From an uncultured Akkermansia sp. (GTDB lineage: Bacteria > Verrucomicrobiota > Verrucomicrobiia > Verrucomicrobiales > Akkermansiaceae), in the NCBI GenBank assembly GCA_947629715.1, contig CANRET010000024.1:1-32134 (forward strand): a DNA stretch of 32,134 bases, written 5' to 3'. Numbering within the stretch: position 1 is the stretch's first letter; the number at the start of each line of letters is the position of its first letter. The translations under genes were made by a program, and so were the position numbers. Under the pieces are notes generated by a model, which was not told the origin of the DNA, did no database searches, and saw only the letters and a program-made list of their open reading frames with translations. This document shows positions 7,567 to 18,964 of the stretch, piece by piece.

Positions 7567-8136
7567 ATGGCAAAAGTACCCGTAATACAGCTTCGCAAAG
7601 GGCATGCAGTCAACTACAATGGAGATATCTGCATCGTGCGCGAAAGTCAGCTCAAAACGCCGCCGCGCATGGCTTCCTACGTTCAAATGACCATTCGCAG
7701 CATTGCCACAAAAAAGGATTACAACCTGCGACTTACGTCAAATGATTTTCTGGAAGGGGTGATGCTTACGCGTGAGGAGATGGAGTTCTCGTACGTGGAT
7801 GGGATGGGGTACCACTTCTTGAACACGGAAACCTACGAGGATACCTGCGTGAGCGAGGACATTGTGGAGCCGGTGAAGGATTACCTGATTGAGGGAAATT
7901 CGTACGTGTTGCTCTTTACGGATGATACGGCGTGTTCTATCGAGCTTCCTGCGGCAATCACCATGGAGGTGGCTGAGGCTCCGGAGGGAGTGAAGGGGAA
8001 TTCGGCCAACAATGTGTACAAGAGTGCGACAATGACGACCGGGCTGGTGGTGCAGGTGCCGCTTTTCATATCAGCCGGGCAGAAAATTTCCGTCAAAACG
8101 GAAGACGGAACGTACCTCGGCCGCGTGAACAGCTGA
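7567..8136 (+). CDS. efp: Elongation factor P with an arginine-tipped loop
   Basis: EF-P binds between the ribosomal P and E sites and relieves stalling at polyproline stretches. The protein has 189 residues, the normal length. Domain I is about 1-65 (Leu-Arg-Lys-Gly near the start), domain II about 70-125 and domain III about 130-189, which ends with the Gln-Val-Pro-Leu-Phe-Ile and Gly-Thr-Tyr-Leu-Gly-Arg-Val motifs. The loop that carries the modified residue reads Lys30-Thr-Pro-Pro-Arg34-Met-Ala-Ser. Arg34 therefore sits where most bacteria have Lys34 in Pro-Gly-Lys-Gly, and aligns with the Arg32 that EarP rhamnosylates in Pseudomonas. No modification-enzyme gene is visible nearby. The MBL-fold gene follows after 71 bp on the same strand and may be cotranscribed. 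Confidence 0.93.
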   Translation: MAKVPVIQLRKGHAVNYNGDICIVRESQLKTPPRMASYVQMTIRSIATKKDYNLRLTSNDFLEGVMLTREEMEFSYVDGMGYHFLNTETYEDTCVSEDIVEPVKDYLIEGNSYVLLFTDDTACSIELPAAITMEVAEAPEGVKGNSANNVYKSATMTTGLVVQVPLFISAGQKISVKTEDGTYLGRVNS

Positions 8137-8207
8137 AAAGCAGCTTGGTGGTAACCCACGGTGGAGGACTGTATTCCGGAACGGCATGTGATTCCCGCTC
8201 GCAGACC

Positions 8208-8975
8208 ATGAAGATTTCAGTGCTGGCCAGCAGCAGTCGTGGGAATGCATCGGTTATCAGTGCTGGAGAAACCGCCATTCTGGTGGATGCGGGCATATCT
8301 GCGCGACGTATTAAACTTGGGCTGGAGGCATGCGGACTGGCGCCGGGCGATCTAACCGGGATATGCATCACGCATGAACACACGGATCACATCAGCGGTC
8401 TGGCAGTACTCAGCGGCAAAGTAACAGCGCCGGTGTACTGCTCGCGCTATTTGCGGGATGATCTGCGCTTTTTGGCTCCCAAGGCAGACTTTACCTACGT
8501 TGAACCCGGAGTCAAAGTGCAGATTGGCGACTTCACCGTGTTGCCTGTCAGTGTGAGTCACGATGCTATTGACCCGCTTGGGTACATTTTTGAAGCGCAG
8601 GGGGTTCGTCTCGGCTATATCACTGATACCGGGGATATTGCTCCCAAGATGCTGTCTGCTTTGCGTGGGCTGAATGCAATCTACCTGGAATCCAACTATG
8701 ATCCCGAGATGCTGCAAAACTCGGGGCGTCCGTTGGATTTGATCGGACGAATAGAGGGACAGTGGGGGCACCTCTCCAATGCACAGGCTTGTGAACTTGT
8801 TTCTCAAATAGCTCACCCGGATTTGCGGCATGTCATCTTGGCGCACCTCTCTCCGGAGTGCAATACGCCTGCCTGCGCCGGCAAAGCCATGCAGGAGGTG
8901 TTGAATAAACTGGAGTGTGCCCCGAAGTTGCACATAGCCAAACAGGCGGAGCAACTCGCCTGGATTGAAGTGTGA
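8208..8975 (+). CDS. YycJ/WalJ-type metallo-beta-lactamase-fold hydrolase
   Basis: A 255-residue single-domain MBL-fold protein. The metal-binding motif Thr-His56-Glu-His58-Thr-Asp60-His61 is intact. Later ligands are plausible in Ser-His-Asp, Tyr-Ile-Thr-Asp-Thr-Gly-Asp, Leu-Glu-Ser-Asn-Tyr-Asp, and Trp-Gly-His-Leu-Ser-Asn with a later Leu-Ala-His-Leu-Ser. The Glu-Ser-Asn-Tyr-Asp and Gly-His-Leu-Ser-Asn motifs are typical of the YycJ (WalJ/VicX) group, putative cytoplasmic nucleases linked to cell-wall signalling or DNA repair in Firmicutes. In this lineage the role is unknown. The ATG at 8208 is chosen because a Met-Lys-Ile-Ser-Val-Leu-Ala-Ser strand starts the fold; the frame extends to a GTG at 8145 without family similarity. 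No strong own promoter was found, so it may depend on the efp promoter. Confidence 0.85.
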   Translation: MKISVLASSSRGNASVISAGETAILVDAGISARRIKLGLEACGLAPGDLTGICITHEHTDHISGLAVLSGKVTAPVYCSRYLRDDLRFLAPKADFTYVEPGVKVQIGDFTVLPVSVSHDAIDPLGYIFEAQGVRLGYITDTGDIAPKMLSALRGLNAIYLESNYDPEMLQNSGRPLDLIGRIEGQWGHLSNAQACELVSQIAHPDLRHVILAHLSPECNTPACAGKAMQEVLNKLECAPKLHIAKQAEQLAWIEV

Positions 8976-9130
8976 CGGATTGGGAAGTTGCAACGCCCAA
9001 CCGCAAGCCAAAGCGGATGCCATCGTTCCTCGCTCACCGAAAGCGCCGGGGAAAATGGTGGGGAAAATGTGATTCCTGCTTGTGAATTGCAAGAACAAAT
9101 GAAGAAACAGCATCATGTTCATTCCCTGCT

Positions 9131-9292
9131 ATGAAAAGAAACGGCACCTGCTTACGAGTATCAGCTTCAGTGGCGACGCTGACTTTCACGCCTGAGTATG
9201 ATGCCGACGGTCACCAGACGCTTATCAACACTGTGGTAGGACAGAGCCAAAAAATATCGCCAAACCGTGAGATGTCACATCTTCAGGCGTGA
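9131..9292 (+). pseudogene. RHS / YD-repeat protein relic
   Basis: A 53-codon frame from the ATG at 9131 to the TGA at 9290-9292. Its centre reads Thr-Phe-Thr-Pro-Glu-Tyr-Asp-Ala-Asp-Gly-His-Gln-Thr-Leu, which resembles one repeat of RHS proteins (the Tyr-Asp-Ala-Asp-Gly-Asn core). After it the usual continuation of the repeat is lost. RHS proteins are large polymorphic toxins or surface proteins carrying many such repeats. A single repeat with no flanking domains is best read as debris of a deleted RHS gene, and its place beside an insertion sequence fits. The match is from memory of the motif only. Confidence 0.45.
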
Positions 9293-9360
9293 GGCCCCTG
9301 GGCGAGCAAGAAAAATGGCGCTTCTTTGCTCACGGGGACGCTTTATTTCAAACATCAGAT

Positions 9361-9379
9361 TTTTCTTGGGACGGATGTG
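9361..9379. repeat. Orphan copy of the IS right-end terminal repeat
   Basis: TTTTCTTGGGACGGATGTG at 9361-9379 is identical to the right end of the insertion sequence at 10831-10849. It lies outside the element, 8 bp from its left end. Together with that end it forms a perfect 19-bp stem with an 8-nt loop. The sequence to its left does not match the inside of the IS. Confidence 0.85.
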
Positions 9380-9387
9380 GTGAAATT
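9379..9387. repeat. Left target-site duplication of the IS
   Basis: GGTGAAATT immediately left of the element is repeated exactly at 10850-10858 immediately right of it. A 9-bp direct repeat is compatible with DDE transposition. The leftmost G is shared with the orphan terminal repeat. Confidence 0.75.
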
Positions 9388-9406
9388 CACATCCGTCCCA
9401 AGAAAA
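9388..9406. repeat. Left terminal inverted repeat of the IS
   Basis: CACATCCGTCCCAAGAAAA, an exact reverse complement of 10831-10849. It marks the left boundary of the element. Confidence 0.9.
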
Positions 9407-9444
9407 TTTTGAGAGAGGGTAAGAGAAGACAAAAAAAAGGAAGG

Positions 9445-9474
9445 TTGATTTGTTTCCTCAGAAAAGAGTATTCT
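9445..9474 (+). promoter_or_regulatory. Possible transposase promoter
   Basis: TTGATT (9445-9450), 18 bp and TATTCT (9469-9474) match four of six positions each. It lies inside the left end of the element, with the transposase ATG 26 nt downstream. A purine-rich AAGGGGG follows the -10 box but is far from the start for a ribosome binding site. Confidence 0.35.
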
Positions 9475-9500
9475 AAGGGGGCAACAACAAAAAACCTTCC

Positions 9501-10763
9501 ATGCCCAGGATAACCATTTTAGCCCAAATTGCAAGAGAAATTCCCCGAGAATTGGTGGAAAGCATTGCAAAGCGCTATCAGGCCGATAAGTACTCAAAAG
9601 GATTGAATACATGGGTGCATTTGCTCACCCTGCTCTTTATGCAGCTTTCTCAAACGTACTCCTTACGAGACGCGTGTAATGCGTTGAAGAGTATGCAGGG
9701 TCAGATGAAATACCTGGGTGTAGACTATACCCCGACACGCAATGCATTGAGTCATCAGAATCAAATAAGGGACTGGAGGGTGTTTCGAGATATCTTTTAT
9801 GCATTGATGAAATACATGGGACAGCAGATTCCCGTAGTAAGAGGGTATGAGACACTCAAAGAGGAAACTGTTCTACTCCTGGATTCTTCCACGGTAACGC
9901 TGTGTCTTAACTTGTTTCCCTGGGCTAGCTATCAGCAAGAAAAGGGAGCGATAAAAATACATACCGTATTCAACGCCAAGACACACTTGCCGCTGGATAT
10001 AGCAGTAACCAACGGCACAGTGGCGGATAATACGGGGGCCTACAGAGTGTTTCCTGCGAAGCGAAGTGTCATTGTGGCAGACAGGGGATATGACGATACG
10101 GAGTTATGGAATGATTGGGACAGCAACGGTCATACGTTTGTCGTCAGGTTTAAGGGTAACATACAATATAAAAGAGTTGCACAACGAGATCAACCCGATG
10201 AAGGGGAGCAGAATATCCTCATAGATGAGATCATTCAACTGACAGGGGAGAAGACAAGTGAGAACTATGGAAAGCCATTACGCAGAATCGCAGTGTACCG
10301 TCCGTACGAAGAAGCACAAAGGAGTCAACGCAAGAATAAGCGAAACAACACGGCAGCAGAAGGAGGAGAAAACGGGCAAGAGGGACAAGAGGCAGGTAAA
10401 CATGGGACTCAGGTGATTGAATTGATAACGAATAATATGGAATGGAGTGCGGGGGAAGTAGCCGAGCTGTATCGCAGGCGTTGGGATATCGAAAGTTTTT
10501 TCAAAATACTCAAGCAACACCTCAATATTAAGAGCTTCGTAGGGACATGCGAGCAGGCTGTGAGATCACAGATATGGGTAGCCATGATTGCCTATTTACT
10601 CGTGAAAGTGCTCAAGCGACGCGCTTCGCATCGGTGGTCGCTGGGAGGATTGGTTCACTACCTACGAATATCACTACTGAGCACGCAGAACCTATTTTCG
10701 TGGCTAAACCAACCGTATGACATGGCTGGGAGGGAAGAGGTTTTAGTGCTCAATAGCACGTAA
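9501..10763 (+). CDS. IS4-family DDE transposase
   Basis: A 420-residue cut-and-paste transposase. The DDE catalytic triad is visible as Asp128 (Leu-Leu-Leu-Asp-Ser-Ser), Asp194 (Val-Ala-Asp-Arg-Gly-Tyr) and Glu331. Glu331 lies in the exact IS4 signature Y-(2)-R-(3)-E-(6)-K at Tyr324, Arg327, Glu331 and Lys338. The helical DNA-binding N-terminus is present (about 1-110). A hydrophilic insertion rich in Gly, Gln, Asn and Glu spans about 272-303, between the second Asp and the Glu, where IS4 enzymes carry a beta-strand insertion domain. No frameshift or stop is seen, so the enzyme looks functional. The start ATG at 9501 follows the terminal repeat by 94 bp. Codon use is more AT-rich than that of neighbouring genes. 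Confidence 0.95.
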   Translation: MPRITILAQIAREIPRELVESIAKRYQADKYSKGLNTWVHLLTLLFMQLSQTYSLRDACNALKSMQGQMKYLGVDYTPTRNALSHQNQIRDWRVFRDIFYALMKYMGQQIPVVRGYETLKEETVLLLDSSTVTLCLNLFPWASYQQEKGAIKIHTVFNAKTHLPLDIAVTNGTVADNTGAYRVFPAKRSVIVADRGYDDTELWNDWDSNGHTFVVRFKGNIQYKRVAQRDQPDEGEQNILIDEIIQLTGEKTSENYGKPLRRIAVYRPYEEAQRSQRKNKRNNTAAEGGENGQEGQEAGKHGTQVIELITNNMEWSAGEVAELYRRRWDIESFFKILKQHLNIKSFVGTCEQAVRSQIWVAMIAYLLVKVLKRRASHRWSLGGLVHYLRISLLSTQNLFSWLNQPYDMAGREEVLVLNST

Positions 10764-10830
10764 AGTTTTATGGAATTGTCCAAAAATCGCCAACTCCTGC
10801 CATCATCATGCTTCCCTCCCATGAATTACA

Positions 10831-10849
10831 TTTTCTTGGGACGGATGTG
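10831..10849. repeat. Right terminal inverted repeat of the IS
   Basis: TTTTCTTGGGACGGATGTG, the exact reverse complement of the left end. The duplicated target GGTGAAATT follows at 10850-10858. Confidence 0.9.
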
Positions 10850-10858
10850 GGTGAAATT
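10850..10858. repeat. Right target-site duplication of the IS
   Basis: GGTGAAATT, identical to 9379-9387 on the other side of the element. Confidence 0.75.
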
Positions 10859-10882
10859 CTGAGGGTTGGTGAGAATTGAGTC

Positions 10883-10911
10883 TTGACACAGAGGGCCGGG
10901 AAAGATACAAT
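10883..10911 (+). promoter_or_regulatory. Strong promoter of the nusA operon
   Basis: A perfect TTGACA at 10883-10888, 17 bp and TACAAT at 10906-10911 give a near-consensus sigma-70-type promoter. Transcription should start near 10918, about 95 nt upstream of the nusA ATG. The right boundary of the IS duplication is only 24 bp upstream, so the promoter was narrowly spared by the insertion. Confidence 0.8.
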
Positions 10912-10944
10912 GGACGCCGCACGAGTTCCGGTCTTATAAAGATT

Positions 10945-10973
10945 GGGGCGGGTTAAGGGCCCGCTCTTTTTTT
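10945..10973 (+). terminator. Attenuator-like intrinsic terminator in the nusA leader
   Basis: A GC stem is built on GCGGG (10948-10952) pairing with CCCGC (10960-10964), extended by three pairs including G-T pairs, with a 7-nt loop. An uninterrupted run of seven T follows (10967-10973). It lies after the predicted transcription start and 40 bp before nusA, so it would act on the operon's own transcript. NusA enhances pausing and termination, so autogenous attenuation is a natural inference. Confidence 0.65.
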
Positions 10974-11013
10974 ATGGATGATCGGGAAATGAACATGCAA
11001 CGACATCAAAACT

Positions 11014-12303
11014 ATGGCCACCACCGACATTACCGCCCTGATCGATTTTTATGTGCGCGAAAAAGATCTGACGCGCGCGAGCGTGCTGCAGGCTCTTGAA
11101 GCTTCATTTCTGACAGCGTACGCGAAGATGGTGCCCGGAGCGGATAAGATTCGCAATCTGAAGGCCGTGGTGAACGCGCAGCGCGGAACGGTCAAGATCA
11201 AAGCGGATATGACGGTGGTGGAGGATGATTGCATGAAGGACCCGTTCAACGAGTTGAAATATTCTACGGCGCTGAGCATGTGTGCTCCGAAGGGCAAAGA
11301 GGTGAAGCCGGGCGATACGCTGAGCGTGAATGTCACTCCACGCGACTTTGGTCGCATTGCAGTGCAGACGGCGAGGCAGACAATGCAGCAGCGAATTCGC
11401 CGCGCCGAGCAGGAAATGTTGGCGGAGGCGTTCAAGGATCGCGTGGGCGAGGTGGTGACCGGCACAGTAAAACGCTACGACAAGGGGGATGTGATTGTAG
11501 AGGTGGAAAAGTTTGAGGGCATTTTGCCGTCGCGTCAGCGGATTCCCGGGGAGGAGTACAACACGGGCGATAAGCTGAGGTTTTATGTCGTGGAGGTGAA
11601 GGACGGCGCGCGCGGACATGAGCTGGTGCTTTCGCGCAGTCATCCGAACTTGGTGAGGAGGTTGTTTGAGAGCGAGGTGATAGAAATAGCGGAGCGCTCG
11701 GTAGAGATTGTGATGGTTGTGCGAGAGGCGGGCTATCGAAGCAAGTTGGTTGTGCGCAGCAATGATGCAAACGTGGATCCGATAGGAGCTTGCGTGGGGA
11801 TACGCGGGTCGCGCGTGAAAAACGTAGTGAATGAACTGAATCACGAGAAGGTGGATATACTGGAATATTCGGATGACAAGAGGGTGATGGTGCAGGAATC
11901 GCTGGCGCCGATAGACCCGTTGAGTGTTGAGGTGGACGAAGATGCTCGAGTGGTGACGGTGTATGTGGAGGATGACAAGGCGGCTGCGAAAGCGAAGGGT
12001 CGCAAGGGACAAAATGTGCGTTTGACGGCGCGGTTGATTTCTGAAAACAATGAGCGCTGGGATGTGCGTGTGGAGGCTCGCGGGGGAGAGACAGGGGTGC
12101 ACGAACAGATGCAGGAGGCAGCCTCTGAGCTTGCGCGTGCGCTGGGTATCAGTGAGGATTTGGGGAAGGCTATGGTGGAGGCCGGTTTCACGCGGGTGCA
12201 GGACATTGTGACATGGGACGTCCAACGGGAGGACTTGATGGAGACGTTGGGTATAACGGAACAGCAGGCGGATCAGATACTCAATGCTGCGAAGAACGCG
12301 TAA
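11014..12303 (+). CDS. nusA: Transcription termination/antitermination factor NusA
   Basis: NusA binds RNA polymerase and nascent RNA and modulates pausing, termination and antitermination. The 429-residue protein has the RNAP-binding N-terminal domain (about 1-125) and an S1 domain (about 145-208, from Gly-Glu-Val-Val-Thr-Gly-Thr-Val). KH1 contains Gly-Ala-Cys-Val-Gly-Ile-Arg-Gly-Ser-Arg-Val at 257-267, and KH2 contains Gly-Arg-Lys-Gly-Gln-Asn-Val-Arg near 328-335. One acidic helix-hairpin-helix repeat closes the protein (about 375-429), so it is intermediate between the short Gram-positive form and the two-repeat E. coli form. It is the first gene of nusA-infB-rbfA. No strong Shine-Dalgarno precedes the ATG at 11014. 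The rimP gene that precedes nusA in many bacteria is absent here. Confidence 0.97.
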   Translation: MATTDITALIDFYVREKDLTRASVLQALEASFLTAYAKMVPGADKIRNLKAVVNAQRGTVKIKADMTVVEDDCMKDPFNELKYSTALSMCAPKGKEVKPGDTLSVNVTPRDFGRIAVQTARQTMQQRIRRAEQEMLAEAFKDRVGEVVTGTVKRYDKGDVIVEVEKFEGILPSRQRIPGEEYNTGDKLRFYVVEVKDGARGHELVLSRSHPNLVRRLFESEVIEIAERSVEIVMVVREAGYRSKLVVRSNDANVDPIGACVGIRGSRVKNVVNELNHEKVDILEYSDDKRVMVQESLAPIDPLSVEVDEDARVVTVYVEDDKAAAKAKGRKGQNVRLTARLISENNERWDVRVEARGGETGVHEQMQEAASELARALGISEDLGKAMVEAGFTRVQDIVTWDVQREDLMETLGITEQQADQILNAAKNA

Positions 12304-12325
12304 CTTGAACCCCTGAAAGAGAAGT

Positions 12326-14386
12326 ATGCCGGGAGATATACCAAAGAAAGAAGCACTGGACTTGCTGGGAGGAAAAAAGAAAAAGGTCGCGACAGAGCAG
12401 CGTCCCCCTGTCCGACCCGAGCCGAAAAAAACGGCGCTGGATTTACTCACTCCGCAGCGTAAAAAGGCGAGCAAACCGGTAGTAACGCCTCCTCGAGAGG
12501 AAGCGCCGACGCCACAGCCACAGCCGTCGGCTCCGGCTCCGGTTCCCCTGCCTGTCTCTGCGTCTGCTTCAGCGGCGGCGCCGACACCTCCCCCCATCGG
12601 CGGCGCCATCAATGTGAAAGCTCCCGTATCGGTGGCGGATCTTTCGGCGCTCATGGGAATGAAGCCTCATAAGTTGATTGCTGAGTTAGTGCGCATGGGC
12701 GTTTTTGCCAATACCGACACCCTTTTGGATAGCGACCAAGTGGCGGCCCTGTGTGAAAAACATGGCTTTACTTACGAGCGAGTGAAGCGAGAGAAGGGCG
12801 CTGGCGTGAAGGCTCCGGTGGAGGTTGTGAAGGAACCTGAAGCCGTGGCGCCCGAAGAAGAGCCGGAAGACATGCTCAAGGTGCGCACTCCCATTATCAC
12901 CGTGATGGGTCATGTGGACCACGGGAAGACATCCTTGCTCGACTACATACGACGCACTAAAGTAGTGGCGGGAGAGGCCGGTGGCATCACACAGCACATA
13001 GGTGCGTACACGGTGAAGCACGGTGAAAATACCATTACATTCATCGATACGCCCGGGCACGCCATATTCACTGAGATGCGTGCGCGAGGCGCAGACGTGA
13101 CAGACATTGTCGTATTGGTGGTGGCGGCGAATGACGGAATTATGCCGCAGACGAAAGAAGCAATCATGCATGCCAAGGCGGCCGGCAAGACGATTATTGT
13201 GGCGGTCAATAAGTGCGATCTGCCGACGGCGGATCCGGTGAGGGTGCGCACGCAGTTGATGGAAGAGGGCTTGGTGCCTACTGACTTTGGTGGGGACGTG
13301 GAGTGCGTGAATGTATCAGCCATGACGGGGGATGGGATTGATGACCTGCTGGAGCTGCTTTGTTTGCAGGCTGAGGTGTTGGAGCTGCGGGCCAATCCCC
13401 GTGCTAATTGCCGCGCTTCCATCATTGAAGCGCGTATGGAGCAGGGTAAGGGAAGTTCGGCCACCGTGATTGTGCAGAGCGGTACGCTCAAGGTGGGCAT
13501 GCCATTCATCTGCGGCCCATATGCCGGCAAAGTAAAAACGCTGATGAACGATCGGGGAGAGAGCATCAAGCGCGTGCTGCCGGGTATGCCTGCAGAGGTG
13601 TCGGGCTTTTTGGAGACTCCCAACGTGGGCGATGAATTGGTGGAGATGGACAACGAACGCGCGGCGCGCAGACTTTCGGAGGAACGTTTGGAGGAATTGC
13701 GTCGCGAACGTCTGGCTGCACCAAGACGCTCACGTATGGAGGATGTTCTGGCGATGATCGGCGAGGGTAGCCATAAGGCCGTGCTTAAGCTCTTCCTGAA
13801 GGGAGATGTTCAGGGGTCGGTGGAGGCTATCAAGAAGGCGATTCTGGACATCAAGAGCGAGAAGGTGGAGTGCCAGTTCATCGGGGCGGCAGCCGGGCCT
13901 ATCTCGGAGAATGATGTGCTGCTGGCATCTTCCTCAGATGCGGTGATACTCGGTTTCAATGTGAAGGTGGAGACCAATGCGGTGAAGGCCGTGAAGCGCG
14001 AGGGAGTGCAGGTGAAGATCTACTCGATTGTGTATGAGCTTATTGATCAAGTGAAAGATGCCATGTTGGGCATGCTTGAGCCGGAGACGCGTGAGACCGT
14101 GATGGGTCATGCTGAAATCAGGCAGATCTATAAATTGAACAAAGGAAAGGCAGCGGGGTCATATGTAACAGACGGCAAGATGTCGCGCACGGCGGAGGCT
14201 CGCGTGCTGAGGGACGGACAAGTGGTCTTTGACGGCCGCATGTCAACCTTGCGCCGCTTCAAGGATGAAGTGGAAGAGGTGAAGAGTGGGTTGGAGTGCG
14301 GCATACGCTTGGCGGACTACGATGATTACGAAGAGGGAGACGTGATCGAATGCTACACTCTGGAAAAAATTAAGCAGACTCTGTGA
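12326..14386 (+). CDS. infB: Translation initiation factor IF-2
   Basis: A GTPase that delivers initiator fMet-tRNA to the 30S subunit and promotes 70S joining. In the 686-residue protein the G motifs are intact: Gly195-His-Val-Asp-His-Gly-Lys-Thr202, Asp241-Thr-Pro-Gly-His, Asn295-Lys-Cys-Asp and Ser-Ala-Met-Thr-Gly. Domains II, III and IV follow to the C-terminus. One IF2-N domain spans about 101-152. The N-terminal extension is short compared with E. coli IF-2 (about 890 residues) and is Pro/Ala/Lys-rich. It holds two copies of a Lys-Lys-x-Ala-Leu-Asp-Leu-Leu motif, at about 7-14 and 34-41. The gene starts 22 bp after nusA behind an AGAGAAG purine stretch and is cotranscribed with it. Confidence 0.97.
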   Translation: MPGDIPKKEALDLLGGKKKKVATEQRPPVRPEPKKTALDLLTPQRKKASKPVVTPPREEAPTPQPQPSAPAPVPLPVSASASAAAPTPPPIGGAINVKAPVSVADLSALMGMKPHKLIAELVRMGVFANTDTLLDSDQVAALCEKHGFTYERVKREKGAGVKAPVEVVKEPEAVAPEEEPEDMLKVRTPIITVMGHVDHGKTSLLDYIRRTKVVAGEAGGITQHIGAYTVKHGENTITFIDTPGHAIFTEMRARGADVTDIVVLVVAANDGIMPQTKEAIMHAKAAGKTIIVAVNKCDLPTADPVRVRTQLMEEGLVPTDFGGDVECVNVSAMTGDGIDDLLELLCLQAEVLELRANPRANCRASIIEARMEQGKGSSATVIVQSGTLKVGMPFICGPYAGKVKTLMNDRGESIKRVLPGMPAEVSGFLETPNVGDELVEMDNERAARRLSEERLEELRRERLAAPRRSRMEDVLAMIGEGSHKAVLKLFLKGDVQGSVEAIKKAILDIKSEKVECQFIGAAAGPISENDVLLASSSDAVILGFNVKVETNAVKAVKREGVQVKIYSIVYELIDQVKDAMLGMLEPETRETVMGHAEIRQIYKLNKGKAAGSYVTDGKMSRTAEARVLRDGQVVFDGRMSTLRRFKDEVEEVKSGLECGIRLADYDDYEEGDVIECYTLEKIKQTL

Positions 14387-14392
14387 GGAAAC

Positions 14393-14779
14393 ATGGCGAC
14401 GCACCGCCTAGATAAGGTGAATGAACTGCTCAAACGGGAGATAGGCACGTGTGTGCAGCGCGAATTTGAGTGGCCCGGGACCATTGTATCCATTTTGGAT
14501 GTGGAGGTGACGGAAGATTTGCGTGAAGCGCGAGTTTGGGTGGGAGTCGTTGGAAAGATGGATGCGACAGCGGTGGTGGAAAAGCTGACGCGTGCGCGCG
14601 GGAGCATCCAGGGAACAGTGAGTCGTCGGGTGACGCTGCGCAATACGCCACGCTTGAGTTTCAGGCATGATGATTCTGCTCGGCGTGGAGTGGATATGGT
14701 CAACCTTTTGGACGATATTGAGAAGAACTTGCCGAAGGCGCCGAGGCTACCGGAGGGAGAGGAGGATCCCGAGTTATGA
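14393..14779 (+). CDS. rbfA: 30S ribosome-binding factor A
   Basis: RbfA binds the maturing 30S subunit, assists 16S rRNA 5'-end processing and supports growth in the cold. The 128-residue protein has the expected size and a KH-like fold. It opens with Met-Ala-Thr-His-Arg-Leu-Asp-Lys-Val-Asn-Glu-Leu-Leu-Lys, carries the Val-Glu-Val-Thr-Glu-Asp-Leu motif near 40, and has Arg-Asn-Thr-Pro-Arg-Leu-Ser-Phe near 83-90. The C-terminal tail is acidic. The ATG lies 6 bp after the infB stop, behind a clear GAGGAA ribosome binding site, so translation is tightly coupled. The position after infB is the standard arrangement. Confidence 0.95.
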   Translation: MATHRLDKVNELLKREIGTCVQREFEWPGTIVSILDVEVTEDLREARVWVGVVGKMDATAVVEKLTRARGSIQGTVSRRVTLRNTPRLSFRHDDSARRGVDMVNLLDDIEKNLPKAPRLPEGEEDPEL

Positions 14780-14800
14780 TTCCCTGAGAACTCACACAAT

Positions 14801-17800
14801 ATGGCGGGAAAGATTAACATACGTCGAGTGGGATCTGTGCTGCCGACGGTCTGCTTGCTGATCTTTCTGGCTTTGTGTGTGGGAGTGGCCTGGCTGAGCA
14901 GCATCGGTCTGCCCGAGGGTGCGCTGCGGTACGTAGAAAGGAAAGTGGCTGAGCAGGGGATTTACCTCAGCCTTGAGAAAGTACGCTTGGATCCCATGCG
15001 GGGGGTGGCTGTGCGAACGGATGATGTGCGATTCTATACGGATGCTGATAAGCGACAAGAACTCGGGAGAGTGCAGAGTGCGGCGGCGGGGTTAAGTTTG
15101 GCCGGGTTGATGTCGGGGGAATTGAGACCTTCTTTTCTGCAGGTGTTGGGGGGAGATTTAGGAATACCTGTGACAGAACCCGCAGGGGAGAGTTTGAGCG
15201 TAAGGCTCGAGCGGATGGAGATTCGGGGTGAGAGAAATGGAATGATGCATGTGGTCGATGGTAAGCTGAGCGTGCAAGGGATGGCAATTTCACTGGCAGG
15301 GAGCGTAGATCCGGCAGTGCTGCCGAAGGGAAAGGGTGAGGGCAAGGGTAAAGATAAGGGGAACGAGAAAGGGAACGGGGCAAAATTGGACCTGGCGGCA
15401 GCGCTGAAGAGCAATCAGGATATCATCAACCGTGTGTACAATGAAGTGCATAACCAGATGTGGAAGTCCGATGAATACCCGACATTAGACCTGCGGTTGG
15501 ATATACGCGAGGATCTGCAGGTGGTGTTGCGTATGACTGTTCCTCGTTACGATGCGGGACAGTTCCATTTTCGGGATGCGACGGCGGATTTGTTGTACAA
15601 CAAACGTAGCATCATCATCAACTCCCTGAGCGTCCGGACAACGGAGCCGGATGCCGTTGCCAGTTTGCAAGGATCTTATGATTTGGACGACAGACATCTG
15701 ATTTTTAATATGAGTAGCACGGTGGCGTTGATGCGTATGATTCGCCACGTAAGTCATCCGAGAATACGCTTTTTCTTGGAAAAGTTTCGCCATCCGGATG
15801 CAAATCCTCCCAGCATCGAACTGAGCGGGGATGTTGAGTTTGAGGAGGACTACACTCTGCAGAGCGCACGTGTGCGCGGGCGGTTGACGCAGGAAAACAT
15901 GATGGTTGGCAGCACGAAGGTGGATGAGTTGGAACTCTCGTTTTTCTACGACAACGGTGATTTCAATATTGACAAGCTTGCGCTGCGCTTTCCTGATGGT
16001 TCGTTGCAAGCGTTGGCGAGCGCGAAAGATCGGGAAGGACAGGCGCAGCTGGTTGCTGATTTGCCAATCCAAAAAGTGCTCACGTTGGTGAACGAGCTTT
16101 CATCGAGCCCGGTGGAGTTGCCGGAAGGTTTGAGATCAGGGGAACGTGTGAACTTGCTGTTGCACGCCCACTTGGATGCCCCTTCGTTCAAACCCGGCCA
16201 GGATACGTGGCAGGACTTTGTGCCTACATTCCACATGCTCGGTGCGCGGTTGTCCACGGACAAAGTGACGTGGAACGGCTACCACTTGGAAAAGCCATGC
16301 CTGGAGGTCAAGCTTGCCGAGATTCAGCAAAAAGAGGATTATTTGCCGGAAGAGGTGGAGCGCGTGCAGTTAACGCTTGAGGCCGCTGAGGCAGAACTCC
16401 CAACAGGTGATGCAAAGCAGCCCGTGCACGTCGCCTCTCCGCATATTAATGCTGACATCCGTGCGCTTTCTTTCGGGGATGACGGTTTACCCAACGAAGC
16501 GGCGAGCGTGACGCTCTCTACGATGGCGGAGTCTGTGACACATGAAACCGCCGGAGCGGCGAGTGCGACGCAGGGTACAGCGCCTGCCGCTGAAACTGAC
16601 ACGCAACGGAACCGCGAAAGCTTTTCCGTTCGCACGCCGCAATTGGAGCTGATTGCCAAGCAAGTGCGGGTCAATTCACGCGGCGCTCCGGAGACTTCGA
16701 GTGTCCGGGAGGCACAGGTAAAGCTGAAATTGGGCGATATGCAGGTGCGAAATGTGCGGGCAGGCAGTGGAGAGCTGGCTCTGGATGAGCTTCGGCAGAT
16801 CAGGCTGCCGGGAGGGTCGGGACGCTTGGTTTCCTCCGGGCGTGCGCAGGCGATTTTTGATGGGCTGAAGTATGGAAATCGTGATGTGGGTAAAGTAACG
16901 CTGAACGCAGAGCTGGGAGAGTATGCGAGCGGTTGCGTTGTTTTGCAGGTTGATGGCGTTGAGGAGGGAGAGACATGTATGGTGAGCGCCAAGCCGAATT
17001 GGAGTGATCCGCAGCAACTTCTCCTCGAAGATGTGCAGCTGAATATGCCGGCGAAATGTTTTGAAATGTTGTTGGATATCGCAGATGTCCGAGTGGATGA
17101 AATTGAGGCGCCTGAGCTGGTGCGTCTGAGCGGGAACATGAGACTCACTCCGGAAATGCAGGTGCAAGATGCCGCGTTGCACGTGGAAATCCCGAAACTG
17201 GTGCGCACACCGCAGCGCGTGAGGGCATTTCGCGGGAAACGCATACCTGTGGGACTTGAAGCGGATGTGACATTGAGAAAGGCGCCTGGTGCGGAAGAGC
17301 TGAATTATGCCGTGCAATTGGGGGCTGCCCATGAGACCGGCAGATTCACCGGGCGCATCACCGGCTCCACTGCCGGTGATCTGCGCGTGACAGGTCACAA
17401 CACCATTCGCCCCGATGTGGTGGATCAGCTTATTGACAACACGCGCGCTCATTCTATCATCCGCGATTTTCGTTTTAATAAAAATAGCAAGGCAACAATT
17501 TCCGACATTGTTGTGCAGGTGGATTGCTCTAGTGGGGTGCAGGTGGATTCTTTCTGTCGCGTGGAGTTGCTGAATGCGGAATACCAGATGGGCGTGCTGC
17601 TGGACAATGAGAATGGCACGGAACGGGTGCGTACCGACATCGGACAGGATCCCTACACGCTGGTTAACCGAGCTACTTGCGGCGTGACGTCTCATGTGCG
17701 TCTTGATTGTAAGACCTCGGACGGTGAACCCATTCCGGATGAGGTTGTGGTGACCATTACCGATCCTACCCTTTTCTACAACAACGCACCCTGGCTCCGT

Positions 17801-18964
17801 CGCAACAAATGGAAAAGTGGTGCGCGAGAGACGAAGCTGAGCGGGGAGGCTGTGATTATTGATGTGGAGCACAGCTTTGTGGAGTTGCGCAAAGTCAGCG
17901 GTACTGTGTATCCGGCTTACTCATTGGGTATGTTCTACCCGGAGTTGTATGGGTTTTTAGAGGATATCGTATTGCCGAACCCGGCGCTGGTGCAGACCGA
18001 GCTGAGCTTGTTTCCAATTTACGATGACTGCAAGCGCCCAATGAGCGGGACGATTCGTGTGGAAGCGCGGAACGGCGCCGGATTTCGTTTTATCGGAACT
18101 ACCATACCGCTGGAGAATTTCTCCGGTTTTATCAGTCTGGCCGATAAGTACGTGCTGTTGGATCGCATGAATGCGAAGAGCTGGGAAGGCGTGCTGGATG
18201 CAGCCGTGCGCATTGGGTTTGCCGGAAAGAACACAGATTTCGATGGGGTGGTGAAGGCCAAATGCATGAATTTGCAGAAGATAGCCGCTTCCTACGGCAG
18301 TAAGCTGTCTCCGGCTTTGTGCAGCGGCGAGATTCGCTTTCGCTCGCCGAACACCGAACTCCGATCAATTACGGCGTACGGGCGCGTGGACATAGAGGAT
18401 GGCGACTTGCTTCAGTTAAGCCTATTTCGTCCGGTGAGCGAAATGATTTCTGATTTGCCTGAGCATCTGAAGCATGTGGAAAAGAAAGCCAGGGGCGATA
18501 ACGTGTCAGATGGAAGTCCCGGATTCTTTATGCGTGTTTTCTCGAGTGTTTTCCGAGGCCTTGGTCGCTGGGTGGGACGCACCGGCGGCAGAATCACCAA
18601 TACTGCCAGCAGCATACCGGGAATGAACCACCTCATTGCTTACGATCTGAAGGAAGCTCACGCAGATTTTCAAATCGCCAATGGCTACATTTTCACTAAC
18701 AACATGAAGGCGATCGGCAGCAACTTAAACGTTCAGCTTAATGTCGGCATCAACTTGGACACGCTTGCCTTACGCGGCAACCTGTGGCCCAAAATATCGA
18801 GCCTGCCCACCATTCTGCTTGCACCGGTCACGGCGTTGTCGGATTTCATGATGGATATTGTGCTTTATGGGACAGTGTCGGATGTCAAATGGCGTATTAC
18901 ATGGGATAAGTTGATCGGGAAAAGGTCGCATCGGACTAAGGAAAAAGAACACGCGGCCGAGTGA
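14801..18964 (+). CDS. Giant AsmA-like / TamB-superfamily envelope protein
   Basis: A 1387-residue protein with one N-terminal membrane anchor (about 13-33) and a very long periplasmic part rich in beta strands. The C-terminal 200 or so residues resemble AsmA-like C-terminal regions: Gly-Asp-Leu-Leu-Gln-Leu, a Lys/Arg-rich segment, Tyr-Ile-Phe-Thr-Asn-Asn, and repeated Leu-Asn-Val strands near the end. AsmA/TamB/YhdP-type proteins form hydrophobic grooves thought to carry phospholipids between inner and outer membrane; that role is inferred here. A low-complexity Lys/Gly/Glu patch sits near residues 176-194, and an Ala/Thr-rich linker near 570-605. The gene begins 21 bp after rbfA and probably shares the nusA operon transcript. 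The start ATG at 14801 is directly before the anchor. Confidence 0.8.
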   Translation: MAGKINIRRVGSVLPTVCLLIFLALCVGVAWLSSIGLPEGALRYVERKVAEQGIYLSLEKVRLDPMRGVAVRTDDVRFYTDADKRQELGRVQSAAAGLSLAGLMSGELRPSFLQVLGGDLGIPVTEPAGESLSVRLERMEIRGERNGMMHVVDGKLSVQGMAISLAGSVDPAVLPKGKGEGKGKDKGNEKGNGAKLDLAAALKSNQDIINRVYNEVHNQMWKSDEYPTLDLRLDIREDLQVVLRMTVPRYDAGQFHFRDATADLLYNKRSIIINSLSVRTTEPDAVASLQGSYDLDDRHLIFNMSSTVALMRMIRHVSHPRIRFFLEKFRHPDANPPSIELSGDVEFEEDYTLQSARVRGRLTQENMMVGSTKVDELELSFFYDNGDFNIDKLALRFPDGSLQALASAKDREGQAQLVADLPIQKVLTLVNELSSSPVELPEGLRSGERVNLLLHAHLDAPSFKPGQDTWQDFVPTFHMLGARLSTDKVTWNGYHLEKPCLEVKLAEIQQKEDYLPEEVERVQLTLEAAEAELPTGDAKQPVHVASPHINADIRALSFGDDGLPNEAASVTLSTMAESVTHETAGAASATQGTAPAAETDTQRNRESFSVRTPQLELIAKQVRVNSRGAPETSSVREAQVKLKLGDMQVRNVRAGSGELALDELRQIRLPGGSGRLVSSGRAQAIFDGLKYGNRDVGKVTLNAELGEYASGCVVLQVDGVEEGETCMVSAKPNWSDPQQLLLEDVQLNMPAKCFEMLLDIADVRVDEIEAPELVRLSGNMRLTPEMQVQDAALHVEIPKLVRTPQRVRAFRGKRIPVGLEADVTLRKAPGAEELNYAVQLGAAHETGRFTGRITGSTAGDLRVTGHNTIRPDVVDQLIDNTRAHSIIRDFRFNKNSKATISDIVVQVDCSSGVQVDSFCRVELLNAEYQMGVLLDNENGTERVRTDIGQDPYTLVNRATCGVTSHVRLDCKTSDGEPIPDEVVVTITDPTLFYNNAPWLRRNKWKSGARETKLSGEAVIIDVEHSFVELRKVSGTVYPAYSLGMFYPELYGFLEDIVLPNPALVQTELSLFPIYDDCKRPMSGTIRVEARNGAGFRFIGTTIPLENFSGFISLADKYVLLDRMNAKSWEGVLDAAVRIGFAGKNTDFDGVVKAKCMNLQKIAASYGSKLSPALCSGEIRFRSPNTELRSITAYGRVDIEDGDLLQLSLFRPVSEMISDLPEHLKHVEKKARGDNVSDGSPGFFMRVFSSVFRGLGRWVGRTGGRITNTASSIPGMNHLIAYDLKEAHADFQIANGYIFTNNMKAIGSNLNVQLNVGINLDTLALRGNLWPKISSLPTILLAPVTALSDFMMDIVLYGTVSDVKWRITWDKLIGKRSHRTKEKEHAAE

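What the first reader, a model, noticed from the sequence alone, without database searches (positions are those of the whole stretch)
10883..11013. Terminator hairpin inside the nusA leader suggests autogenous attenuation
A near-consensus promoter is followed about 27 nt after the predicted start by an 8-bp stem and seven T, then 40 bp to nusA. A terminator placed between an operon's promoter and its first gene normally acts as an attenuator. Because NusA stimulates intrinsic termination, it could lower its own synthesis together with IF-2 and RbfA. The hairpin would also stop transcription arriving from the IS.
Basis: partly seen in the sequence, partly recalled or inferred. Interest (0 to 1): 0.5.

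Follow-up and report, generated by a model that had tools for sequence, protein, structure and literature searches.

The report
Conserved terminator guarding the nusA operon
The short RNA made just before the nusA gene folds into a transcription stop signal that Akkermansia and many of its relatives have kept, most likely so that the termination factor NusA can limit its own production, as is reported for Bacillus.

Summary
In detail: promoter 10883-10911, hairpin 10945-10967, seven T, then 40 nt to nusA at 11014. The window is Akkermansia.

All 70 distinct Akkermansia nusA leaders examined keep the hairpin. In 58 of them the core arms are practically invariant, while nusA third codon positions are 48% identical and DNA above the promoter 26%. 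A strict hairpin-plus-U rule is met by 133 of 143 leaders sampled across the phylum, against 3 of 715 shuffles. Upstream genes differ in kind and direction, so it is not simply another gene's end.

This is the kind of attenuator described as the 'rimP-leader'; in B. subtilis, NusA-stimulated termination in its own leader autoregulates NusA (review passage). Two differences: no RimP was found in 69 Verrucomicrobiota genomes, so the element sits on nusA itself, which favours NusA over RimP as regulator; and 58 of 70 Akkermansia leaders carry an invariant hairpin abutting the terminator. The Rfam rimP model does not match. An antiterminator role for that hairpin is possible but little above shuffled controls. 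Regulation by NusA is inferred, not shown.

The parts
10883..10911 (+). sigma-70-type promoter of the nusA operon (TTGACA, 17 nt, TACAAT); predicted start about 10918
   Evidence: a best-scoring site of at least 9 of 12 letters with 15-17 nt spacing stands at the same place in 57 of 58 main-group leaders, but in only 4 of 12 muciniphila/glycaniphila-type leaders (the rest score 8); no chance control was run for that scan
10928..10946 (+). hairpin 1 (CCGGUCUU-AUA-AAGAUUGG), abutting the terminator
   Evidence: minimum-energy fold; GUUC[CU]GGUC present in 58 of 58 main-group leaders and GAUUGG in 57 of 58; but the RNAalifold consensus of all 70 leaders shows only the terminator
10925..10949 (+). 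longer form of hairpin 1 (GUUCCGGUCUU / AAGAUUGGGGC) that would take up the 5' base of the terminator stem; candidate antiterminator
   Evidence: predicted in the RNA cut before the terminator 3' arm, -15.2 kcal/mol; only weakly above shuffled controls
10945..10967 (+). intrinsic-terminator hairpin GGGGCGGG..CCCGCUCU
   Evidence: conserved
10967..10973 (+). U tract, seven T
   Evidence: longest T run 6-8 in 69 of 70 Akkermansia leaders, 3 in one
10974..11013 (+). 40-nt spacer to nusA, no promoter-like site, no Shine-Dalgarno-like tetramer
11014..12303 (+). nusA, first gene of the operon
   Evidence: TIGR01953, 313.9 bits over a cut-off of 253.4
12326..14386 (+). infB (IF-2), same operon (inferred from 22-nt gap)
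   Evidence: TIGR00487
14393..14779 (+). rbfA, same operon (inferred from 6-nt gap)
   Evidence: TIGR00082
9388..10849 (+). IS4-family insertion sequence upstream of the promoter, flanked by a repeat GGTGAAATT(C) (9379-9388 and 10850-10859); not part of the attenuator

Best explanation
A leader attenuator of the nusA-infB-rbfA operon. RNA polymerase starts near 10918, copies about 50 nt of leader that forms hairpin 1 and then a GC-rich hairpin followed by seven U, and either stops there or reads on into nusA. Because no promoter-like site lies between the hairpin and nusA, the read-through fraction sets the output of this promoter. The most likely control is autogenous: NusA, which stimulates intrinsic termination, raises termination when abundant and lets transcription through when scarce, so keeping NusA (and with it IF-2 and RbfA) at a set level. 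Shown: sequence, conservation, position, absence of RimP from the genomes searched. Inferred: the start site, actual termination, partial read-through, and the effect of NusA.
For: Hairpin in 70 of 70 distinct Akkermansia leaders, 36 of 40 leaders of other genera of the order and 27 of 33 of other orders by one strict rule, 3 of 715 shuffles. In 58 main-group leaders the stem arms are practically invariant while nusA third positions are 48% identical and the 60 nt above the promoter 26% (57 leaders). The core pattern occurs once per genome in 55 of 76 genus genomes, each time at the nusA leader, with no hit of the reversed control pattern (places compared). Upstream neighbours vary in family and direction. 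A review passage states that in B. [quoted passage not shown] Premature-terminator analysis found the same placement and G-rich/C-rich stem before rimP-nusA-infB in many bacteria and names NusA the best candidate regulator (passages). RimP_N was found in 0 of 20 relatives and 0 of 69 phylum genomes, 10 of 14 controls positive.
Against: No transcript data: no start site, 3' end or NusA response was seen. 10 of 143 leaders fail the rule; by eye 5 of them hold a similar hairpin with a bulge, long loop or short T run (G163, G104, G080, G083, G220) and 5 show none (G196, G212, G179, G185, G190). The muciniphila-type leaders have weaker promoter matches. The terminator looks strong, which would need considerable read-through for an essential operon.
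Confidence: 0.72

Rival explanations
1. Attenuator controlled by something other than NusA: hairpin 1 in its longer form is an antiterminator that withholds the 5' base of the terminator, and a protein, ribosome state or small molecule acting on the invariant GUUCCGGUC..GAUUGG box decides which form wins.
For: GUUC[CU]GGUC in 58 of 58 main-group leaders, including bases that are unpaired in the two-hairpin fold but paired in the longer hairpin. Folding of RNA cut before the terminator 3' arm gives the longer hairpin in the window and in several of 14 leaders folded.
Against: Pairing of the terminator 5' arm with upstream RNA is 0.85 against 0.70 in shuffles for the 58, 0.78 against 0.63 for the other 12, and no better than shuffles in family f4. 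The near-invariant sequence gives almost no covariation. RNAalifold on all 70 leaders predicts only the terminator. The published rimP-leader shows no visible antiterminator outside some Gammaproteobacteria (passage).
Confidence: 0.2
2. Unregulated partial terminator that only sets a fixed level of operon transcription or protects the operon from read-through.
For: A constant terminator after the promoter lowers output and also damps transcription arriving from upstream; 4 of the 10 upstream neighbours examined run toward nusA, and here a co-directional IS4 element does.
Against: A plain terminator need not keep its letters: the stem arms are far more conserved than silent sites, and 6 of the 10 neighbours examined point away.
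Confidence: 0.15
3. Terminator of the gene upstream of nusA.
For: Intergenic position.
Against: It lies downstream of the promoter, stays with nusA in leaders whose upstream genes are of different families and either direction, and remains here after an IS insertion.
Confidence: 0.02
4. The 3' arm CGCUCUUU is a boxA, so NusB/S10 rather than termination is the key.
For: CCCGCTC is invariant in the 58 main-group leaders and resembles boxA (gammaproteobacterial consensus GYTCTTTAANA, passage).
Against: The rRNA leaders examined in three Akkermansia genomes (one copy each) hold no GCTCTTT in about 600 nt above 16S, although one other genus of the family has AAGCTCTTTGACAGT. In relatives the same place reads CCCACTCTTT.
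Confidence: 0.03
5. Promoter and terminator define a roughly 55-nt small RNA acting elsewhere, with nusA expressed by read-through.
For: Promoter, two hairpins and a terminator in 60 nt.
Against: The loop of hairpin 1 varies in length (4-9 nt) and the 14 nt before the hairpin share 54% identity, so an exposed conserved pairing stretch is not evident.
Confidence: 0.05

Closest known systems
rimP-leader attenuator (Naville and Gautheret 2010, PMC2965389; passages seen)
   Same: Terminator between promoter and first gene of the rimP-nusA-infB operon; stem G-rich on the 5' arm and C-rich on the 3' arm followed by a T stretch; spacing to the gene within the published 4-130 nt; mostly no clear antiterminator.
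   Different: Here the first gene is nusA, RimP was not found in the phylum genomes searched; in Akkermansia the pair inside GGG..CCC is mostly U-A or U-G, not the reported c-g; 58 of 70 Akkermansia leaders have an added invariant hairpin. The word Verrucomicrobi does not occur in that paper's text (term count).
NusA autoregulation in Bacillus subtilis (Mondal 2016, known here only through the review PMC12288461, passages)
   Same: Intrinsic terminator in the 5' leader of the operon that encodes NusA; read-through controls nusA.
   Different: Tested there; only inferred here. The original paper was not held, so its leader sequence was not compared.
Rfam RF01770, Gammaproteobacteria rimP leader
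   Same: Ends in a GGG..CCC hairpin with seven U, 17 nt before rimP in E. coli K-12.
   Different: No match at the window leader, and none of the sub-threshold matches in 20 relatives lies at a nusA leader.
BoxA-dependent control of Nus factor genes such as suhB (PMC5725501, passages)
   Same: Feedback control of a Nus factor through its own leader.
   Different: Works through boxA and Rho; no boxA evidence here.

Membership tests
rimP-leader attenuator (broad sense) | terminator between promoter and first gene of the operon holding nusA and infB | tested here: met
rimP-leader attenuator (broad sense) | G-rich 5' arm, C-rich 3' arm (GGG..CCC) followed by U stretch | tested here: met
   window GGGGCGGG..CCCGCUCUUUUUUU; GGG..CCC then T in 70 of 70 Akkermansia, 36 of 40 other-genus leaders of the order, 21 of 33 of other orders
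rimP-leader attenuator (broad sense) | conserved c-g pair next to GGG..CCC (GGGc..gCCC) | tested here: not met
   main-group Akkermansia leaders mostly read GGGU..ACCC or GGGU..GCCC
rimP-leader attenuator (broad sense) | first gene is rimP | tested here: not met
   first gene is nusA; RimP_N found in 0 of 20 and 0 of 69 genomes
Rfam RF01770 | score at or above the gathering cut-off | tested here: not met
   E. coli control 102 bits
NusA-autoregulated attenuator (B. subtilis type) | intrinsic terminator in the nusA operon leader | tested here: met
   as sequence; termination itself not measured
NusA-autoregulated attenuator (B. subtilis type) | termination stimulated by NusA; nusA expression rises when NusA falls | not testable with these tools
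   needs in vitro transcription or NusA depletion
BoxA element | match to the host's rRNA boxA | tested here: not met
   no GCTCTTT in the rRNA leaders of three Akkermansia genomes examined, one copy each

The most novel reading that the evidence does not exclude
The invariant GUUCCGGUC..GAUUGG hairpin of most Akkermansia leaders is a genus-specific control module: it competes with the base of the terminator and is read by NusA or another factor, turning the ancient nusA attenuator into a two-state switch; and the letter-level conservation of the stem across Verrucomicrobiota without RimP means that the stem is a sequence-specific NusA target.
Probability: 0.25. Interest if true: 0.65.

Novelty: new variant of a known kind. 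Interest (0 to 1): 0.4.

Why it matters
The regulator of the widespread rimP-leader was left open between RimP and NusA in the 2010 description. A phylum in which RimP was not found (0 of 69 genomes) but in which most sampled nusA leaders keep the element (133 of 143) is a natural experiment that points to NusA. It also offers a simple leader of about 60 nt in a well-studied gut commensal for testing how a general termination factor keeps its own level, and a cleanly conserved second hairpin whose role can be tested by single mutations.

Tried and rejected
Upstream-gene terminator: rejected on varied neighbours (10 of 20 contexts were scanned with Pfam, 8 of the 10 gave a family). BoxA: rejected. 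Rfam families: none reached the gathering score in the window; 7 sub-threshold matches near the leader are treated as chance. Antiterminator: tested and left open. Weak RF01770 matches in 14 of 20 relatives lie on other contigs or far from nusA and were dropped. Papers: searches (nusA, rimP, attenuation; Akkermansia transcript maps) showed, in their listings, no description of this leader in Akkermansia or Verrucomicrobiota; the library holds openly licensed papers only and supplements could not be read. Sampling: 70 distinct leaders came from 70 of the 75 genus genomes with nusA plus 50 loci, after merging identical 180-nt stretches (the window's own is one of the 70); 40 of the 90 other-genus genomes and 33 of the 59 other-order genomes were chosen by hand to span families. 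The regex count of the base pair inside GGG..CCC is unreliable for GGGGCGGG stems and is not used.

Full report
Observation. The window is from Akkermansia (genus search; titles of related records). At 10883-10911 stands TTGACA-17-TACAAT, at 10945-10967 a GC-rich stem with a short loop, at 10967-10973 seven T, and nusA begins at 11014. The stem has the most pairs and most G-C pairs of the 14 terminator-like sites in 8000-18000 and folds at -14.8 kcal/mol alone, z = -3.1. nusA is followed by infB and rbfA. The operon is preceded by an IS4-family element (9388-10849) flanked by a short direct repeat; the promoter and hairpin lie outside it.

Conservation in the genus. NusA was found in 75 of 76 genus genomes. 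From 70 of these and from 50 loci of a named collection the 150 nt above nusA plus 30 nt of gene were taken and merged to 70 distinct sequences, the window's own included. All 70 hold a C-rich 3' arm followed by T, 27-60 nt before the ATG, and all 70 pass the strict rule. A best-scoring promoter of at least 9 of 12 letters stands just above the hairpins in 57 of 58 main-group leaders; of the 12 muciniphila/glycaniphila-type leaders only 4 reach 9 letters (no chance control). In the 58, GTTC[CT]GGTC and CCCGCTC are practically invariant; mean pairwise identity is 0.48 at nusA third codon positions, 0.54 in the 14 nt before hairpin 1, 0.40 in nt 9-24 after CCCGCTC, and 0.26 in the 60 nt above the promoter (57 leaders). 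The pattern TTCCGGTC-N(1-14)-GATTGGRGCGGG occurs in 55 of 76 genomes, once each, always at the nusA leader (places compared); the reversed control pattern gives none. The 21 without it are 17 muciniphila/glycaniphila-type genomes, one genome in which nusA was not found, and 3 others; two of these 3 carry slightly different leaders that were read (L092, L113), the third genome (G050) was not fetched.

Conservation in the phylum. Leaders of 40 genomes of other genera of the order and 33 of other orders were read. With one rule (stem of at least 6 pairs, loop 3-8, at least four G-C pairs, U-rich tail, at most -8 kcal/mol) 58 of 58, 12 of 12, 36 of 40 and 27 of 33 pass, in all 133 of 143, against 3 of 715 shuffles. 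Typical forms are GAGUGGG..CCCGCUCUUUU and GAGUGGG..CCCACUCUUUU. Of the 10 failures, 5 hold a similar hairpin by eye (bulge, longer loop or short T run) and 5 show none.

It belongs to nusA. In 20 Akkermansia contexts the nearest long upstream reading frames differ. Of 10 scanned, 8 fall in different Pfam families (ankyrin repeats, NADH dehydrogenase 49 kDa, squalene/phytoene synthase, DNA polymerase III delta, autotransporter, methyltransferase, porphobilinogen deaminase, DsbD) and 2 in none; 4 of the 10 run toward nusA and 6 away. So the cassette moves with nusA and is not the end of one particular gene.

What it resembles. [quoted passage not shown] In E. coli K-12 the same kind of hairpin (GGGCUUUAGGCCCUUUUUUU) ends 17 nt before rimP and is the end of the Rfam model RF01770. 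A 2025 review states that B. subtilis NusA is autoregulated by NusA-stimulated termination in its leader (passages); the primary paper was not held. For E. coli, two terminators before rimP and a role of NusA in controlling its own operon are mentioned (passages). RF01770 itself does not match here (in one search, 14 of 20 relatives have sub-threshold matches, none at a nusA leader, none over the cut-off). RimP_N was found in 0 of 20 relatives and 0 of 69 phylum genomes, with 10 of 14 control genomes positive. A leader element kept on nusA where RimP was not found fits NusA, not RimP, as the regulator; this is an inference from comparison.

Second hairpin. The window leader folds into two abutting hairpins. 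RNA cut before the terminator's 3' arm folds into a longer first hairpin that takes up the 5' base of the terminator. This suggests an antiterminator, and the invariance of GUU, unpaired in the two-hairpin fold, would fit. Against it: pairing of the terminator arm with upstream RNA is only 0.85 against 0.70 in shuffles for the 58 leaders (0.78 against 0.63 for the other 12; 0.69/0.63, 0.60/0.55, 0.63/0.58 and 0.51/0.62 in other groups of the order; 0.74/0.61 in other orders); RNAalifold of all 70 leaders predicts the terminator alone; and invariance leaves little covariation. It stays open.

Other tests. A boxA reading of CGCUCUUU fails: the rRNA leaders examined in three Akkermansia genomes (one copy each) hold no GCTCTTT, and relatives have CCCACTC at that place. 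No Shine-Dalgarno-like tetramer was found before nusA in 0-of-70 Akkermansia leaders, against 6 of 40 and 24 of 33 leaders of the wider samples that have one, so the hairpin is unlikely to act by hiding a ribosome site in Akkermansia.

Verdict. It is a variant of a known kind. The papers found (listings, with passages where cited) did not describe it in this phylum.

Noticed in passing
phylum sample: RimP (PF02576) was found in none of 69 Verrucomicrobiota genomes although 10 of 14 control genomes ring; only the N-terminal domain model was used.
   Followed up: partly
window 9355-9412: The left end of the IS4 element directly meets another copy of the same IS end in opposite orientation, so the element seems to have landed at the edge of an older IS remnant.
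   Followed up: no
own genome G000, 25 places: Pieces of this IS stand at many contig ends in the assembly, suggesting a recently expanded IS that breaks the assembly.
   Followed up: no
Akkermansia nusA starts (70 leaders): None has a Shine-Dalgarno-like tetramer in the 18 nt scanned before nusA, while 24 of 33 leaders of other orders do.
   Followed up: partly
L221, L222, L224 against L223: No GCTCTTT boxA was seen above 16S in three Akkermansia genomes (one copy each); another genus of the family has AAGCTCTTTGACAGT.
   Followed up: partly
window 17433-17460: An 11-of-12 promoter-like match lies inside the long frame 14801-18964; probably chance.
   Followed up: no
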